Positions 11,721-61,649 of a stretch of DNA of 64,000 bases are shown one piece after another. This stretch comes from Clostridia bacterium. GTDB lineage: Bacteria; Bacillota; Clostridia; Lachnospirales; Lachnospiraceae. Positions within the stretch are counted from its first letter, which is position 1; the number at the start of each line of letters is the position of its first letter. The translations under genes and the position numbers were made by a program. The notes beneath the pieces are model-generated. The model did no database searches. It worked only from the letters and a program-made list of their open reading frames with translations, and had not been told where the DNA came from. The DNA is taken from positions 22,173 to 86,172 of the forward strand of contig QKJQ01000001.1 of assembly GCA_003249225.1 (NCBI GenBank), written 5' to 3'.

Positions 11721-11852
11721 ATTCTCATGACACAATTTGTGTATTTATTAGTTTTTATGCATTTAATTTCATTTTACACAGATTTAACATGCAATTCACA
11801 TATAATTTACCTATACTGAGTTTTATAGATACTCAATCATCGCTTTCACTTA

Positions 11853-20093: not shown

Positions 20094-21473
20094 TTATTTT
20101 AATGTGATCTGTGCTTCACACTCGCTCTGCGCTGCATCAAGTGCTTCCTGTACTGTCATGGTACCTGTTGCCGCTGCCGAAAGCTTGTCAGTGATAATAT
20201 CTGCCATCATGCTGTAGTCTTCGATGATCGGAGGAACCACAAGGTAATTCAAAGAGTCAAAGACTGCCTGACGGTTTTCCGGCGGTGTTATTGCAAGATA
20301 CCCATTTAATACATCCTGATTGTTGATTGCAGGGAGGTCCCAGCCTGCTGCTATACGAAGCTGCGCTGATTCATCACTGGAAGCAAGCCATGTGATCCAG
20401 GTAATGGCAGCATCTTTTTTCTCACTGCTCGCATTCACAACCAGTGAATTGCTGAAAAAGTGTGTTGCCTTTTGTGTCTGTCCGGGTTCTACACAGATAT
20501 CCCATGCAAAGTCACAGGCATCTGTAAAGGTATTGAATGCCCAGATACCGGTCGGAATCATACCAAGGCGTCCGCTCTCAAACAGATCCCAGTCACCCAT
20601 ACCGCCCATCTGTTCCGATGTAGGCTGTACATTGCTGACCAGAATACGGTCTACCATCATCTGTGCCGCTGCAATGTTTTCTGCTGAGTTAATTGTAAAC
20701 ATTGTCTTATCACTATTCAACAAAGATCCACCAAATTGTGCCGCAACTTTAAAGAACTCATTGTAGGTGATCGGTGCATAGATTCCATAATAGTCATCAC
20801 CAAGAGCTTTGATTGCTTCGGAAGCTGCCTGAACATCATCCCATGTCCAGCTGCTGTCCGGATAAGAAACACCGGCCTGATCAAAAAGATCTTTGTTAAA
20901 GAATAACACTACATTAGAAAAGTTGCCTGGCAGTCCGTACTGTGTTCCATTCACATTAAATGCACTCAGCGCCGTCGTGTTGAACTTGCTTGTATCGGAA
21001 GCAGAAAGATCTGCCAGTACACCTTTTGCCGCATAGGAAGCAAAATTTTCAATGTTCAGTTCATAACAGTCCGGTGCTGTTCCGCCGGCCACCCTAGTCT
21101 GCATTAAGGTGAAATAATCGGAATATGCTACGGTTTCGATTTCGACGGTTATGTTCGGATACACTTCGTGAAATGCTTCGTACATGGAAGCAAGTGTTGC
21201 TTCATTTCCGCCGGATGCATTGAAGTTACAGTATGTGATCGTAACCGGTTCTGCTGCATCAGCCGCACTGCTGTCAGCAGCTGTACTGTTATCGGTAGCT
21301 GCTGCGCTGTCTGTTGGTGTACTGTTATCGGTCTTTCCTGCATTTTCTGAAGTACTTGCAGTACCTGCTGTGTTCTGCGTATTCTGGCTTGTATTCGTTG
21401 TATTGGTGTTACCACAGGCAACTAAACCAAGCATCATTGCTGCAATTAATAGTATTACGAATCCTCGTTTCAT
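20094..21473 (-). CDS. Sugar ABC transporter substrate-binding lipoprotein
   Basis: A 459-residue extracellular binding protein. The signal peptide MKRGFVILLIAAMMLGLVAC ends in a lipobox (LVAC) whose Cys20 is the lipid anchor. A low-complexity Asn/Thr/Ser/Ala linker of about 50 residues follows, then the family 1 solute-binding fold (VTITYCNFNASGGNEATLAS; GIWAFNTFTDACDFAWDI). GGGAGG precedes the ATG. It is the first gene of the operon and captures an alpha-linked oligosaccharide for the two permeases. Twin palindromic operators lie 70-115 bases upstream of its start. Confidence 0.93.
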   Translation of the reverse strand: MKRGFVILLIAAMMLGLVACGNTNTTNTSQNTQNTAGTASTSENAGKTDNSTPTDSAAATDNSTAADSSAADAAEPVTITYCNFNASGGNEATLASMYEAFHEVYPNITVEIETVAYSDYFTLMQTRVAGGTAPDCYELNIENFASYAAKGVLADLSASDTSKFNTTALSAFNVNGTQYGLPGNFSNVVLFFNKDLFDQAGVSYPDSSWTWDDVQAASEAIKALGDDYYGIYAPITYNEFFKVAAQFGGSLLNSDKTMFTINSAENIAAAQMMVDRILVSNVQPTSEQMGGMGDWDLFESGRLGMIPTGIWAFNTFTDACDFAWDICVEPGQTQKATHFFSNSLVVNASSEKKDAAITWITWLASSDESAQLRIAAGWDLPAINNQDVLNGYLAITPPENRQAVFDSLNYLVVPPIIEDYSMMADIITDKLSAAATGTMTVQEALDAAQSECEAQITLK

Positions 21474-25222: not shown

Positions 25223-25276
25223 TTCACACTTTCTTCACGTAAGTACCACGACTGCTTCACAATTTCGTTCTATACT
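25223..25276 (+). promoter_or_regulatory. Four-hexamer 11-bp-phased box and -10 element of candidate sRNA 1
   Basis: TTCACA (25223), TTCACG (25234), ACCACG (25245) and TTCACA (25256) start exactly 11 bp apart, and TATACT (25271-25276) follows nine bases after the last. There is no -35 consensus, as at activator-dependent promoters. The hexamers match the Bacillus PhoP half-site TT(A/C/T)ACA and its usual -60 to -20 placement. The same arrangement recurs at 26109-26162. Confidence 0.65.
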
Positions 25277-25282
25277 AAGTTC

Positions 25283-25450
25283 ATCAAAGAAAACAGAACA
25301 GAAAAACTTGCAAACAAACCCATCAAGGAACTTGATCTTCAAAGAAACACAAATAAGCTTACTTTCTTAAATTTAAATAGATTTCATAATACTCCCCTTA
25401 AAGAAGCGTTTTGTTTACCACCTCCCCGGTAAACAAAGCGCTTCCTCCCT
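25283..25450 (+). ncRNA. Candidate small RNA 1 with C-rich anti-Shine-Dalgarno motifs
   Basis: The predicted transcript starts about seven bases after TATACT and is about 165 nt. It holds an ATCAAG/CTTGAT hairpin (near 25322-25336), the segment TAGATTTCATAATACTCCCC shared with candidate 2, and a 16-bp terminator-like stem (25404-25419 with 25428-25443, one G-U pair) whose loop is ACCTCCCC. The tail after the stem is pyrimidine-rich but has only short T-runs. No conserved open frame or ribosome site is present. The exposed CTCCCC segments could pair with GGGGAG-type ribosome sites, as in RsaE/RoxS and the streptococcal csRNAs. It runs convergently toward the ParB-fold gene. Confidence 0.6.
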
Positions 25451-25463
25451 TTACAGGGAAGAT

Positions 25464-25919
25464 TTAGTGCCAATTATTTTGTTCGATCCGCTGCCGCAAT
25501 TCATCTTCCTGGTCTTTGTTGCCCCAAAGAATCACTGCGCACTCTTTACGATTCATCTTTTCTAAAGCACTGAATCTGTGATTCCCATCGGTAAGAACAA
25601 GCCTTCCCTCATCGATTTGTGCAATAAGCGGTGGCATATCCCATTCATCAAGCTTTTCAATAATTTTGTCGACTTTGTGGTTGAACCATTTCACTTCATT
25701 CGCATCTGTAATATCTTTCTCAATTCGTACCGTTGACAGACTGGTAAGCGGAAGCATCATAGGCCCAAAATAAACCCGCTCCTCTAAAAGAAGTCCATCC
25801 GCAAATCCGTAGTTAGGATTTGGCATATCTTTGTCTTCATAACGAAGAAAGGCCTGAATCCATTCTTTTAGCTTATTGTTCACCGCATATTGTTTTGCTT
25901 CTGTTAATGTGTAGTTCAT
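25464..25919 (-). CDS. ParB/sulfiredoxin-fold (ParB N-terminal domain) protein
   Basis: A 151-residue protein carrying only a ParB-N-type domain: MMLPLTSLSTVRIEKD corresponds to the N-terminal strand and LVLTDGNHRFSALEKM contains the DGNHR motif, the phosphate or nucleotide-binding box. It lacks the HTH and dimer domains of chromosome-partitioning ParB, so it is not a partition protein; related short proteins may act as small nucleases, kinases or CTP-binding switches. It is flanked on both sides by the duplicated sRNA cassette, which points away from and into it on the plus strand. Confidence 0.78.
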   Translation of the reverse strand: MNYTLTEAKQYAVNNKLKEWIQAFLRYEDKDMPNPNYGFADGLLLEERVYFGPMMLPLTSLSTVRIEKDITDANEVKWFNHKVDKIIEKLDEWDMPPLIAQIDEGRLVLTDGNHRFSALEKMNRKECAVILWGNKDQEDELRQRIEQNNWH

Positions 25920-26108
25920 AAACCTATCCCCAATTCAAAATTTATGATTCAGCTGCCTATGATATTGGTTTCAAAAGGTATCTTGTTAACAACATCATAC
26001 TATTTACACTATACCACAATAATGATTCCTTTGGAAATATTTGATTCTAAAAGCAATAGCAAAATGATAACACTAAAAAATTGTGTTTTTTATACTGAGA
26101 CAAATCAA

Positions 26109-26162
26109 TTCACAAATTATTCACTTTACCGCCACTTCTGCTTCACATTTTCTCATTATACT
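26109..26162 (+). promoter_or_regulatory. Four-hexamer 11-bp-phased box and -10 element of candidate sRNA 2
   Basis: TTCACA (26109), TTCACT (26120), GCCACT (26131) and TTCACA (26142) start 11 bp apart, with TATACT at 26157-26162 after nine bases. Hexamer order, register and distance to the -10 box are identical to the first cassette, although the spacers differ, so the phased hexamers look selected. Confidence 0.65.
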
Positions 26163-26168
26163 AAGCAT

Positions 26169-26288
26169 AGAAACAAAAGAAACACATCAAGAAGCCTACT
26201 ACCTAAAATTGAAATAGATTTCATAATACTCCCCTTAAAAAAGCGTTTTGTTCTCCTTCCCCCCGGTGAACAAAGCGCTTTTTACTTG
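26169..26288 (+). ncRNA. Candidate small RNA 2 with C-rich anti-Shine-Dalgarno motifs
   Basis: A predicted transcript of about 120 nt, paralogous to candidate 1: the start TATACTAAG, the motif ACATCAAG, the segment TAGATTTCATAATACTCCCC and the terminator stem are shared. The stem AAAAAGCGTTTTGTTC (26238-26253) pairs with 26268-26283 with one G-U pair, the loop contains CTCCTTCCCCCC, and a T-run follows. It lies on the same strand about 230 bases upstream of an ECF sigma gene whose ribosome site is GGGGGGAG, so it could act in trans, in cis as a leader, or both. Confidence 0.62.
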
Positions 26289-29692: not shown

Positions 29693-29987
29693 GACAAAAT
29701 AAAAAACTCCCGTCCCTTTGTTACCAAAAGGACGAGAGTACAATCTCGTGTTACCACCTAAAGTTCACAGATAACTCACGTTACCTGTCTCATCAGGTAC
29801 GGCAAAAGCGATACCCTGGCACTTGATCACGGTGTGCTCTCCGTCGCAGCCTACTTTATGTTCGGTGCGCAGCTCAAAGAGGTATTCACACTTTCTATCC
29901 ATGAGCCTCTCATCAACCGGCGTCTTTCTGTTTGGAATCAAAAATGCTACTCTTTCTTATCATAGCCTTTTTCAATCTATTTAGTTA
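29693..29987 (-). promoter_or_regulatory. T-box leader, tyrosine specifier (UAC), upstream of tyrS
   Basis: Read leftward, the leader contains the T-box core GGTGGTAACACGAG, followed by a terminator stem (CTCTCGTCC with GGACGGGAG) and a run of T. In stem I the specifier is TAC at 29882-29884, ten bases before the end of the shared GAGC element. Confidence 0.93.
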
Positions 29988-44795: not shown

Positions 44796-45081
44796 CAAAA
44801 AAACCCTAAGCATAATAAAATTATGCTTAGGGCGAATAATCCGCGGTTCCACCTAAGTTCAGATGATTTTTCATCTGCTCTTTCCCAATACGGGTCACAT
44901 CAGGACCTTATACTGAATTCCCTTTAACGGCAGAATACTCCGTCGGTAGCTACTTTAAAAAAATTCACTCCGCTGCTCCAAGACGCCTTCCATGCACCTG
45001 TCATAGGAATTCACACCAGTCATTCCCTCTCTGTAAATCAAGATACCATGTACTACTTCTTTTCGTTGCATTTAAAATATA
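44796..45081 (-). promoter_or_regulatory. T-box leader, glycine specifier (GGC), upstream of glyS
   Basis: On the minus strand the T-box core is AGGTGGAACCGCGG, then the terminator stem CCCTAAGCATAA / TTATGCTTAGGG and a run of seven T. The specifier is GGC at 44985-44987, in the same register as in the tyrS and alaS leaders. Confidence 0.94.
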
Positions 45082-47139: not shown

Positions 47140-47444
47140 AAAAGCCCTCCTCTCTGAAAATTTCTTTTCAGGGACGAGAGCCAAAGCTTCGTGTTACCAC
47201 CCTAATTCGCCCATACCTCACAGTATAAGCCTTATCAACTACGGAAAGACAGATCATCCCTCGATAGCCTGTCACTATAACGGGTGCACCCGTCGCAGCC
47301 TAACTTTAAAAGTTCGGTGCGCAGCTCCGAGACCATGTTCGATCATTCTTGCCTTCCTCATTCTCACCCTTCTGAGGTCTCTGTAAAAGCGCCAACCATC
47401 TACTCTTCTCTTCTTCGCCTTTGCTGCTTCAATATTTATTTACA
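47140..47444 (-). promoter_or_regulatory. T-box leader upstream of the truncated acetyltransferase, specifier best read AUG
   Basis: On the minus strand the T-box core is GGGTGGTAACACGAAG, followed by a 17-bp terminator stem with one mismatch and TTTTATT; the 3' arm of that stem contains the AGGAGG ribosome site. Aligned with the four synthetase leaders by the ten-base distance to GAGC, the specifier is ATG (47336-47334), that is Met; one base off it would be CAT (His). Confidence 0.85.
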
Positions 47445-55351: not shown

Positions 55352-55616
55352 TAAGAAAAGCACCCACTGGTCACAGTTTTATTCCATGACCAAAGGGTGC
55401 ATAAATTCTAATGCACGGTTCCACCTTTACTTTTCACTTCGGATTCTATCAAATCCTAGACCTTAACGCAGTCACACGGTAATGCTTACATTTTCGGCAC
55501 TACAGCTCAGGAATGGTTTTCTTATAACTTTCACATAAAAAGCTTTCACCAAATGCTTTTCTCTCTGAATGCTTCTGCTATAATACTCTTTCCGTCAATG
55601 CTTTTCTTTATGTTGT
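55352..55616 (-). promoter_or_regulatory. T-box leader, threonine specifier (ACC), upstream of thrS
   Basis: On the minus strand the T-box core reads AGGTGGAACCGTGC, followed by a terminator stem GCACCC..TGGTCA / TGACCA..GGGTGC and T-run. The specifier ACC is at 55517-55515, ten bases before the end of GAGC. Confidence 0.9.
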
Positions 55617-61344: not shown

Positions 61345-61649
61345 TATAAAAACGCCCTAAGCCAACATATTGTCAGCTTAGGGCGAATATATCATCGCGG
61401 TACCACCTAATTTCAGATTTCTCTGCTCTCTTAGTACGGGATTTCTCCGATACTTTTTCCTGTGATAACGGTGGAATTCCGTTGAAGCCTACTAAGAATT
61501 CATTCTTTTCGGTTCAAAGCTCAAAGACTGCTTCCGTTTCAGTTCAATGAAGATTCACACCAGCCATCTTCTCTCTGAAGAGATATCTCTATCTCTGTTA
61601 AATCCCTGATACGTACTATTTCTCATCGACGCCTTTTTATTTTAAGTTA
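61345..61649 (-). promoter_or_regulatory. T-box leader, alanine specifier (GCA), upstream of alaS
   Basis: On the minus strand the T-box core is AGGTGGTACCGCGATG, then the terminator CGCCCTAAGC / GCTTAGGGCG with a T-run. The specifier GCA is at 61531-61529. Confidence 0.95.

What the first reader, a model, noticed from the sequence alone, without database searches (positions are those of the whole stretch)
25223..26288. Two paralogous intergenic cassettes that look like response-regulator-controlled small RNAs
Seen directly: both cassettes have four hexamers at exactly 11-bp intervals (TTCACA, TTCACG/T, A/GCCACG/T, TTCACA), nine bases to TATACTAAG, a variable body, the shared TAGATTTCATAATACTCCCC segment, and a near-perfect 16-bp stem with a C-rich loop. 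No ORF is conserved. Family knowledge: 11-bp phased hexamers of form TT(A/C/T)ACA upstream of a -10 box without a -35 are the PhoP (OmpR/PhoB) box, and C-rich loops under such a regulator are the design of streptococcal csRNAs and of RsaE/RoxS. Inference: this is a pair of sister sRNAs that block ribosome sites, possibly under phosphate or envelope control. They flank a ParB-fold gene and precede an ECF sigma gene.
Basis: partly seen in the sequence, partly recalled or inferred. Interest (0 to 1): 0.85.

Follow-up and report, generated by a model that had tools for sequence, protein, structure and literature searches.

The report
Envelope-stress small RNAs blocking translation starts
The window carries two of seven copies in this genome of a short intergenic element whose promoter array recurs in nearly half of the 397 related genomes searched, standing at most of the sites examined before the same kind of RNA-like sequence and also before htrA-type protease genes; it likely encodes small RNAs that are predicted to be switched on by an envelope-stress regulator and would stop protein synthesis by pairing with the start sites of messenger RNAs.

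Summary
In detail: both cassettes have four hexamers 11 bp apart, nine bases to TATACT, a shared core and a long hairpin. The genome has seven copies, a same-genus genome three. Array plus -10 occurs in 183 of 397 genomes of the taxonomic family (reversed pattern: 4). Of 110 sites examined, 83 are followed by a U-run with CAU and then CUCC-type motifs, contiguous or split by a covarying hairpin (controls 5 and 6 of 110). Conversely, 29 of 30 hits of a model of the RNA alone have the array upstream (0 of 60 controls). A matrix trained on the RNA promoters finds the array before 41 of 50 htrA-type genes (0 of 80 controls) but not before pstS here. The controller is therefore most likely the htrA-controlling response regulator (CssR/CiaR/LisR kind), not PhoP. 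The core is antisense to SD + AUG-AAA and prefers start regions beyond shuffled seeds, with a weak lean to exported proteins. No Rfam family matches. By design it is a counterpart of streptococcal csRNAs and listerial LhrC with its own box and layout. Regulator gene, expression, 3' end and targets are untested.

The parts
25223..25261 (+). copy 1: four-hexamer array, 11-bp period (TTCACA, TTCACG, ACCACG, TTCACA)
   Evidence: array matrix score 36.1 bits
25271..25276 (+). copy 1: -10 element TATACT, nine bases after the array; transcription start inferred near 25283
   Evidence: in 83 related sites the base before the inferred start is C or T in 99% and the start base A in 66%
25283..25450 (+). 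copy 1: predicted small RNA, about 165 nt
   Evidence: seven copies in the genome
25375..25398 (+). copy 1: conserved core AAATAGATTTCATAATACTCCCCT, antisense to SD + AUG AAA
25403..25444 (+). copy 1: terminator-like hairpin, 17 bp, loop ACCTCCCC, tail CTCCCTTT (not a clean U-run)
   Evidence: the simple terminator scan flags this hairpin only on the opposite strand
26109..26147 (+). copy 2: four-hexamer array (TTCACA, TTCACT, GCCACT, TTCACA)
   Evidence: 45.0 bits
26157..26162 (+). copy 2: -10 element TATACT; start inferred near 26169
26169..26288 (+). copy 2: predicted small RNA, about 120 nt
26212..26235 (+). copy 2: conserved core
26238..26283 (+). copy 2: terminator-like hairpin, loop TTCCCCCC, U-rich 3' side (CTTTTTACTT)
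   Evidence: not flagged by the simple terminator scan
20094..21473 (-). possible target: substrate-binding-protein-like lipoprotein gene whose start GGGAGGTATTTATGAAA pairs with the core (-15.2 kcal/mol); a homologue's start lies on the G003 contig L092
   Evidence: prediction only, not among the 25 best

Best explanation
The two cassettes are likely genes for sister small RNAs, members of a large bacterial RNA family that is predicted to be transcribed from an 11-bp phased response-regulator array shared with htrA-type genes and would block translation by pairing with the Shine-Dalgarno and AUG-AAA start of target mRNAs. Shown by sequence: the phased array at fixed distance from the -10, seven copies in this genome, family-wide recurrence with the conserved parts UUUUUCAUA and CUCC(U/C), a covarying hairpin between them in many relatives, and the same array upstream of htrA-type genes. 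Inferred: an OmpR-family regulator of the CssR/CiaR/LisR kind, activated by misfolded or damaged envelope proteins, binds the array and recruits RNA polymerase without a -35 element; the RNA then binds mRNAs by a bipartite anti-start (CAU with flanking U's) and anti-SD (CUCC) segment. Exported proteins and lipoproteins, many of which begin SD-AUG-AAA-AA, would be preferred targets, so the stress response would raise quality control (HtrA) and lower the inflow of new exported protein together.
For: Seven copies with varied bodies but a nearly invariant 24-nt core; the C4 copy, whose terminator is unrelated, still has hexamer-like steps of 11 bp in phase with its likely -10, in G000 and in G003 (my reading; 16.3 and 12.5 bits). 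Array + -10 in 183 of 397 family genomes, reversed pattern in 4. The third hexamer, not part of that pattern, comes out C 96%, A 100% at its third and fourth positions. RNA-like element after 83 of 110 sites, controls 5 and 6 of 110; strict rule 66 of 110, controls 0 and 4. Hairpin covariation in 13 aligned relatives: 6 of 8 pairs with double changes, score 0.72 against 0.21 shuffled and at most 0.15 slid. Converse test: 29 of 30 RNA-model hits have the array upstream, 0 of 60 controls. htrA: 41 of 50 upstream regions above every one of 80 controls, both htrA-type genes of this genome among them (15.1 and 2.0 bits). The core pairs with start regions better than inside genes, by 2.99 kcal/mol against 1.01 (sd 0.56) for 12 shuffled seeds. 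No ORF: the anti-start ATG opens a median of 13 codons on the reverse strand, 0 of 83 reach 50; closed + strand ORFs within the RNA have at most 30 codons. Known parallels: CiaR drives htrA and csRNAs with anti-SD/anti-AUG (PMC3091779, PMC12826053); LisR drives LhrC (PMC4132741); CssR box TTTTCACA (PMC6749698); passages read.
Against: No transcript data. Copy 1's hairpin has no clean U-run and the terminator scan flags neither hairpin in the + direction. The regulator gene was not identified: of 24 DNA-binding-domain matches in this genome, three have a half array upstream above the best reverse-strand control (10.3 bits), and the best of them has a different repeat. htrA scores are lower than those of the RNAs; 9 of 50 fall below the threshold and only 29 exceed 10 bits. 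The short seeds CUUUUUCAUAAU and CACUCCUCAUUUU taken singly do not prefer start regions more than shuffled seeds do. Preference for exported targets is weak: p = 0.016 for the core on 525 genes and not significant on 212 of this genome's own genes (p = 0.27; top decile 8 of 21 against 64 of 212 overall). No perfect target was found: all seven genome matches to the full antisense, up to 3 mismatches, are the RNAs themselves. The split-hairpin model R3 does not hit this genome's own, contiguous-type copies, so the tie between the two layouts rests on the shared array, CAU and CUCC parts. Two same-genus genomes, one rated 100% complete, gave no hit of R1.
Confidence: 0.72

Rival explanations
1. 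Phosphate control: the array is a PhoP/PhoB box and the RNAs respond to phosphate limitation.
For: TTCACA fits the recalled PhoP consensus TT(A/T/C)ACA; the 110 array sites include one PhoB-like regulator gene (L163, best NCBIfam model PhoB at 251.9 bits, below its cut-off of 296.2).
Against: pstS of this genome scores -17 bits and carries TTTACA/TTAACA; L163 reads TTTACA in three of four hexamers, each a mismatch to TTCACA; htrA-type genes carry the array.
Confidence: 0.06
2. WalR (YycF) or another essential cell-wall regulator drives the array; the RNAs are part of wall homeostasis rather than secretion stress.
For: The recalled WalR box TGTWAH-N5-TGTWAH read backwards resembles the hexamers; yycFG lies upstream of an htrA gene in some Gram-positives (PMC12826053, passages); one array site precedes a protein with choline-binding repeats (L171).
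Against: The third position of the hexamers is C in 72-100% of the sites (partly imposed by the search pattern except in hexamer 3, 96%), which WalR boxes lack (recalled); no wall hydrolase was recognised among the 27 other sites, of which only some were scanned by profile.
Confidence: 0.14
3. The RNA is a decoy for a protein (an RNA chaperone or a ribosome-associated factor) and UUUUUCAUAA is a protein site, not an antisense seed.
For: U-rich single-stranded stretch with invariant CAU; varied spacing between the two conserved parts; the short seeds alone show no start-region preference beyond shuffles.
Against: Two separate conserved parts, CAU and CUCC(U/C), are anti-AUG and anti-SD, and this genome's joined core prefers start regions beyond composition.
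Confidence: 0.13
4. A dispersed repeat without function, or the start region of a gene on the opposite strand.
For: Multicopy in one genome; the reverse strand reads SD-like then ATGAAA.
Against: Reverse ORFs have a median of 13 codons, 0 of 83 reach 50; a hairpin separates the 'SD' from the 'ATG' in many relatives; compensatory pair changes; the promoter stands upstream of 29 of 30 RNA-model hits.
Confidence: 0.02

Closest known systems
csRNAs of the CiaRH regulon (Streptococcus)
   Same: several similar RNAs per genome; hexamer direct repeat with N5 about ten bases from a -10; unpaired anti-SD and anti-AUG (CAU in 53 of 61 csRNAs); the same regulator activates htrA (PMC3091779, PMC12826053, passages read)
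   Different: box TTTAAG twice there, TTCACA-type three to five times here; other bacteria; here many relatives have the anti-AUG and anti-SD split by a covarying hairpin
LhrC1-5 of the LisRK regulon (Listeria)
   Same: multicopy, cell-envelope-stress response regulator, UCCC anti-SD motifs, reported targets include the surface-exposed LapB, OppA and TcsA (PMC4132741, PMC7602753, passages read)
   Different: no LisR consensus had been identified in that paper; three UCCC sites in two loops and a linker; no anti-AUG segment mentioned in the passages read; no Rfam match here
CssRS secretion-stress regulon (Bacillus subtilis)
   Same: box TTTTCACA (PMC6749698, one passage), two htrA genes as members (PMC12826053, passages)
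   Different: I know of no small RNA of this kind in that regulon (recall); a search for CssR with small RNA listed 4 papers, none opened
RsaE/RoxS and FsrA C-rich RNAs
   Same: C-rich segment that would pair with SD sequences (recalled; UCCC role of RsaE and FsrA mentioned in PMC4132741)
   Different: other regulators (recalled); no Rfam match in the loci scanned

Membership tests
csRNA (CiaR-dependent RNA) | TTTAAG-N5-TTTAAG box about ten bases before the -10 | tested here: not met
   box is TTCACA-type, four hexamers in the window copies
csRNA (CiaR-dependent RNA) | unpaired anti-SD and anti-AUG segment | tested here: met
   core TTTCATAATACTCCCC in front of the hairpin, unpaired or nearly so in the predicted folds; in copy 2 the minimum-energy fold has a weak 5-bp stem over part of it, absent from the centroid
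csRNA (CiaR-dependent RNA) | promoter box shared with htrA | tested here: met
   array before 41 of 50 htrA-type genes; that one regulator reads both is inferred
LhrC | match to a described RNA family in Rfam | tested here: not met
   nothing relevant at E <= 1 in the cassettes nor at E <= 0.1 in 18 relatives' loci; that Rfam holds an LhrC family is recalled
LhrC | LisR-dependent, induced by cell-wall antibiotics | not testable with these tools
   needs expression data
PhoP/PhoB regulon | same box as the pst promoter of the genome | tested here: not met
   pstS upstream best score -17 bits
CssR-type regulon | TTTTCACA-like repeats before htrA | tested here: met
   (A/T)CACA-N5/6-(A/T)CACA arrays before most of the 50 genes; consensus from PMC6749698
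CssR-type regulon | orthologous CssR/CssS pair reads the array | tested here: inconclusive
   a regulator-kinase pair in L277 has a half array 28 nt before its start, but L281 and L280 score higher; no NCBIfam model above its cut-off among the 25 shown

The most novel reading that the evidence does not exclude
A whole bacterial family uses a secretion-stress regulator to make 'anti-start' RNAs that mimic the antisense of a generic exported-protein start (SD, AUG, AAA, AA), so that when the envelope is overloaded the cell throttles translation of its exported proteome while raising HtrA: a Gram-positive counterpart of the sigma-E / MicA-RybB brake on outer-membrane proteins.
Probability: 0.35. 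Interest if true: 0.85.

Novelty: new variant of a known kind. Interest (0 to 1): 0.72.

Why it matters
If right, it adds a large, apparently undescribed small-RNA family to a species-rich group of Clostridia, in which response-regulator-controlled small RNAs are, to my knowledge, hardly known, and ties it to htrA control. It would show that the pairing 'htrA regulator plus multicopy anti-start RNA', known from streptococci and Listeria, recurs with a different box and a different RNA layout, and it makes the question of how Gram-positive bacteria reduce secretory load at the translation level directly testable.

Tried and rejected
Rejected: phosphate control (pstS); conserved ORF on either strand; promoterless repeat; a single perfect target of the core (one search found only the RNAs). 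R1 hits in G004, G005 and G045 showed no good array in the scan and look like chance. Of 24 stretches with the 18-nt core in named genomes, three are SZUA-448 contigs; the other 21 and the one viral contig have neither the AAATAG extension nor a close array. Five other family genomes have the core with 3 mismatches; I did not inspect them one by one (the one in G292 is the reverse of an ordinary gene start).

Led nowhere or weak: RNAalifold found no structure on alignment A5 of 22 RNAs because stems of two registers were mixed, so I used 13 of them in one register and gave the structure by hand, which favours that structure; model R2 is sequence-only and was not used. The order-wide search with R3 scored only 17 candidates a genome, so 30 of 344 is a low bound, and the 30 come from 10 genera only. 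The duplex test on this genome's own genes was biased by how many loci had been picked and showed no export preference. Regulator search by half array was inconclusive. Paper searches on such RNAs in Lachnospiraceae or Clostridia (9 paper searches in all) showed no report of them in their listings; most listed papers were not opened, and open-access text is only part of print.

Selection to bear in mind: the 110 array sites are the 30 given as loci plus 80 of the further listed rows (about 150 rows were listed and more were not) that I fetched in list order, skipping some rows, several of them with a poor -10; 83 of 110 is therefore not an unbiased rate. My 110-site rules were written after looking at the first sites. 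The 50 htrA loci are the 30 given as loci plus 20 of its remaining rows, all from the better-scoring part of the list; the scanned stretch can include the first part of the gene, distances to the start codon were not checked one by one, and some misses have little upstream DNA (contig ends: L222, L231, L258). Two of the 30 sites (L342, L363) had been training sites of the matrix.

Full report
What is there. Both cassettes are as described. In each, four hexamers sit at exact 11-bp steps, nine bases separate the last one from TATACTAAG, a body of different length follows, then the shared core and a long hairpin. One hundred shuffles of the window never give two such arrays.

Copies in the genome. 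Searches by array, by DNA, by antisense and by core together give seven copies: the two here, one on contig C35, three within 15 kb on C28 and one on C4. The six array-bearing copies have bodies and stems that differ, with changes on both sides in 6 of 19 stem pairs, while AAATAGATTTCATAATACTCCCCT has at most one change per copy. The C4 copy has an unrelated terminator; its array is degenerate (16.3 and 12.5 bits in two registers), but by my reading hexamer-like steps of 11 bp (TTTACG, TTCATT, TACATA, CTCACA, AACATA) run up to nine bases before its likely -10, in this genome and in the same-genus genome G003. G003 is the MAG 'Clostridia bacterium SZUA-448', to judge by equal contig lengths and sequence. 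It holds a tandem pair with arrays that match the pattern exactly beside counterparts of the HAD and DGNHR genes and of the lipoprotein gene; motifs of the ECF gene were not found on that contig stretch. Two other same-genus genomes gave no hit. No call names the taxonomic family; its size and the class of the relative suggest Lachnospiraceae (inference).

The array is family-wide. Array plus -10, with three mismatches allowed and the third hexamer left open, hits 183 of 397 genomes; by my reading of the table the reversed pattern hits 4 (G003 was not among the 397). I examined 110 of these sites. In 66, a run of T followed by CATA and, within about 75 nt, TCC[TC]C lies downstream (upstream control 0, opposite strand 4). 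With a looser rule it is 83 (controls 5 and 6). The open third hexamer reads C in 96% and A in 100% of the 83 at its third and fourth positions; the base before the inferred start is C or T in 99%. No Rfam family matches in the stretches scanned.

The RNA. By a distance rule, in 60 of 83 the CAU and the CUCC-type part are more than 14 nt apart and in 23 they lie within 14 nt, as in this genome; 54 of the 83 have a predicted hairpin better than -6 kcal/mol between the two. In an alignment of 13 split-type RNAs TTTTTCATA and CTCCT are invariant while 6 of 8 stem pairs change on both sides; the covariation score is 0.72 against 0.21 (sd 0.05) in shuffles and at most 0.15 when slid. A model of this RNA part alone (R3), searched in 344 genomes of the order, hit 30, all in the same family and in 10 genera; it does not hit this genome, whose copies are contiguous. 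Upstream of 29 of the 30 lies the array with its -10, 28-71 nt before the T-run; 0 of 60 control stretches pass the threshold. Two of these sites had been training sites of the matrix.

Which regulator. The other 27 of the 110 sites include seven ABC-transporter ATPase genes alike in sequence (one scanned: GldA type, below cut-off), VTC-domain genes (two by Pfam), an HtrA-type protease, an HlyD-type adaptor, a protein with choline-binding repeats, other exported proteins, and a PhoB-like regulator gene with TTTACA hexamers; several of the 27 are unresolved, some of them RNA-like. I then tested htrA directly. With a matrix trained only on the 83 RNA promoters, 25 of 30 and 16 of 20 htrA-type upstream regions exceed 0.45 bits, more than any of 80 controls (opposite strand in both calls, shuffles; highest 0.449); 29 of 50 exceed 10 bits. 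Both htrA-type genes of this genome are among the positives (15.1 and 2.0 bits). pstS of this genome scores -17. The array is therefore shared by the RNAs and htrA, the pattern known for CiaR in streptococci; htrA is also reported under LisR in Listeria and CssR in B. subtilis (PMC3091779, PMC4132741, PMC12826053, PMC6749698; passages read). The regulator gene itself is not identified.

What it does. The core read backwards is AGGGGAGTATTATGAAATCT: an SD, a short spacer and AUG AAA. Duplex energies on 525 genes from the held DNA of the family (this genome's loci included; L043-L067 and L291-L340 left out) show that the core binds start regions better than gene interiors by 2.99 kcal/mol on average, against 1.01 (sd 0.56) for 12 shuffled seeds; it binds genes with a hydrophobic N-terminus slightly better (p = 0.016; mean difference -0.65 against +0.37, sd 0.29, for shuffles). 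The 12-nt anti-start seed shows the same lean to such genes (p = 0.0026; -0.57 against -0.04, sd 0.18, for 20 shuffles) but, like the anti-SD seed, does not by itself prefer start regions beyond shuffles. Genes that begin ATGAAAAA have hydrophobic N-termini in 10 of 14 cases against 21% of 400 others. On 212 genes of this genome the export lean is not significant (p = 0.27). A lipoprotein gene 3.7 kb away (start at 21473, minus strand) begins GGGAGGTATTTATGAAA and pairs with the core at -15.2 kcal/mol, a value that at least 25 other start regions exceed; a homologue with the same start lies on the G003 contig.

Reading. Predicted small RNAs under the htrA-controlling response regulator, acting as antisense to translation starts, is the best account; that they mainly relieve the envelope by damping exported proteins is the bolder and less certain step. 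Against it stand the lack of any expression data, the imperfect U-runs, the weak htrA scores in part of the set and the unproven targets.

Noticed in passing
window 11773-11811 (+): Another phased array, TTTACA/TTAACA/TTCACA/TTTACC at 11-bp steps, flush against TATACTGAG; I recognised no gene downstream on that strand in the stretch printed.
   Followed up: no
window 29725-29972, 44825-45075, 47167-47424, 55390-55607, 61376-61638 (-): Five T-box leaders above Rfam's gathering score in one 64-kb window.
   Followed up: no
L017 13469-15292 (C28 of the genome): An ORF that looks like a secreted trypsin-like protease (by eye, no profile scan) lies convergent to the C28a copy; three RNA copies sit within 15 kb there.
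   Followed up: no
L005 (C1:185726 of the genome): A further array (19.6 bits) in this genome lies upstream of an ORF with a signal-peptide-like start.
   Followed up: no
L095, L111, L112, L117, L119, L148, L169; L143, L164: In seven relatives' loci the same array precedes an ABC ATPase gene, in two a VTC-domain (polyphosphate-polymerase-like) gene, suggesting further regulon members.
   Followed up: partly
L281 (C4:27772 of the genome), upstream of a response-regulator gene: A different 11-bp repeat, AACCATAATTC twice, directly before the -10-like AACCTTATACT.
   Followed up: no
window 25464-25919 (-): The small gene between the copies has no Pfam match at 1e-3 but a DGNHR motif; in G003 both RNA copies lie on one side of its counterpart.
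   Followed up: partly
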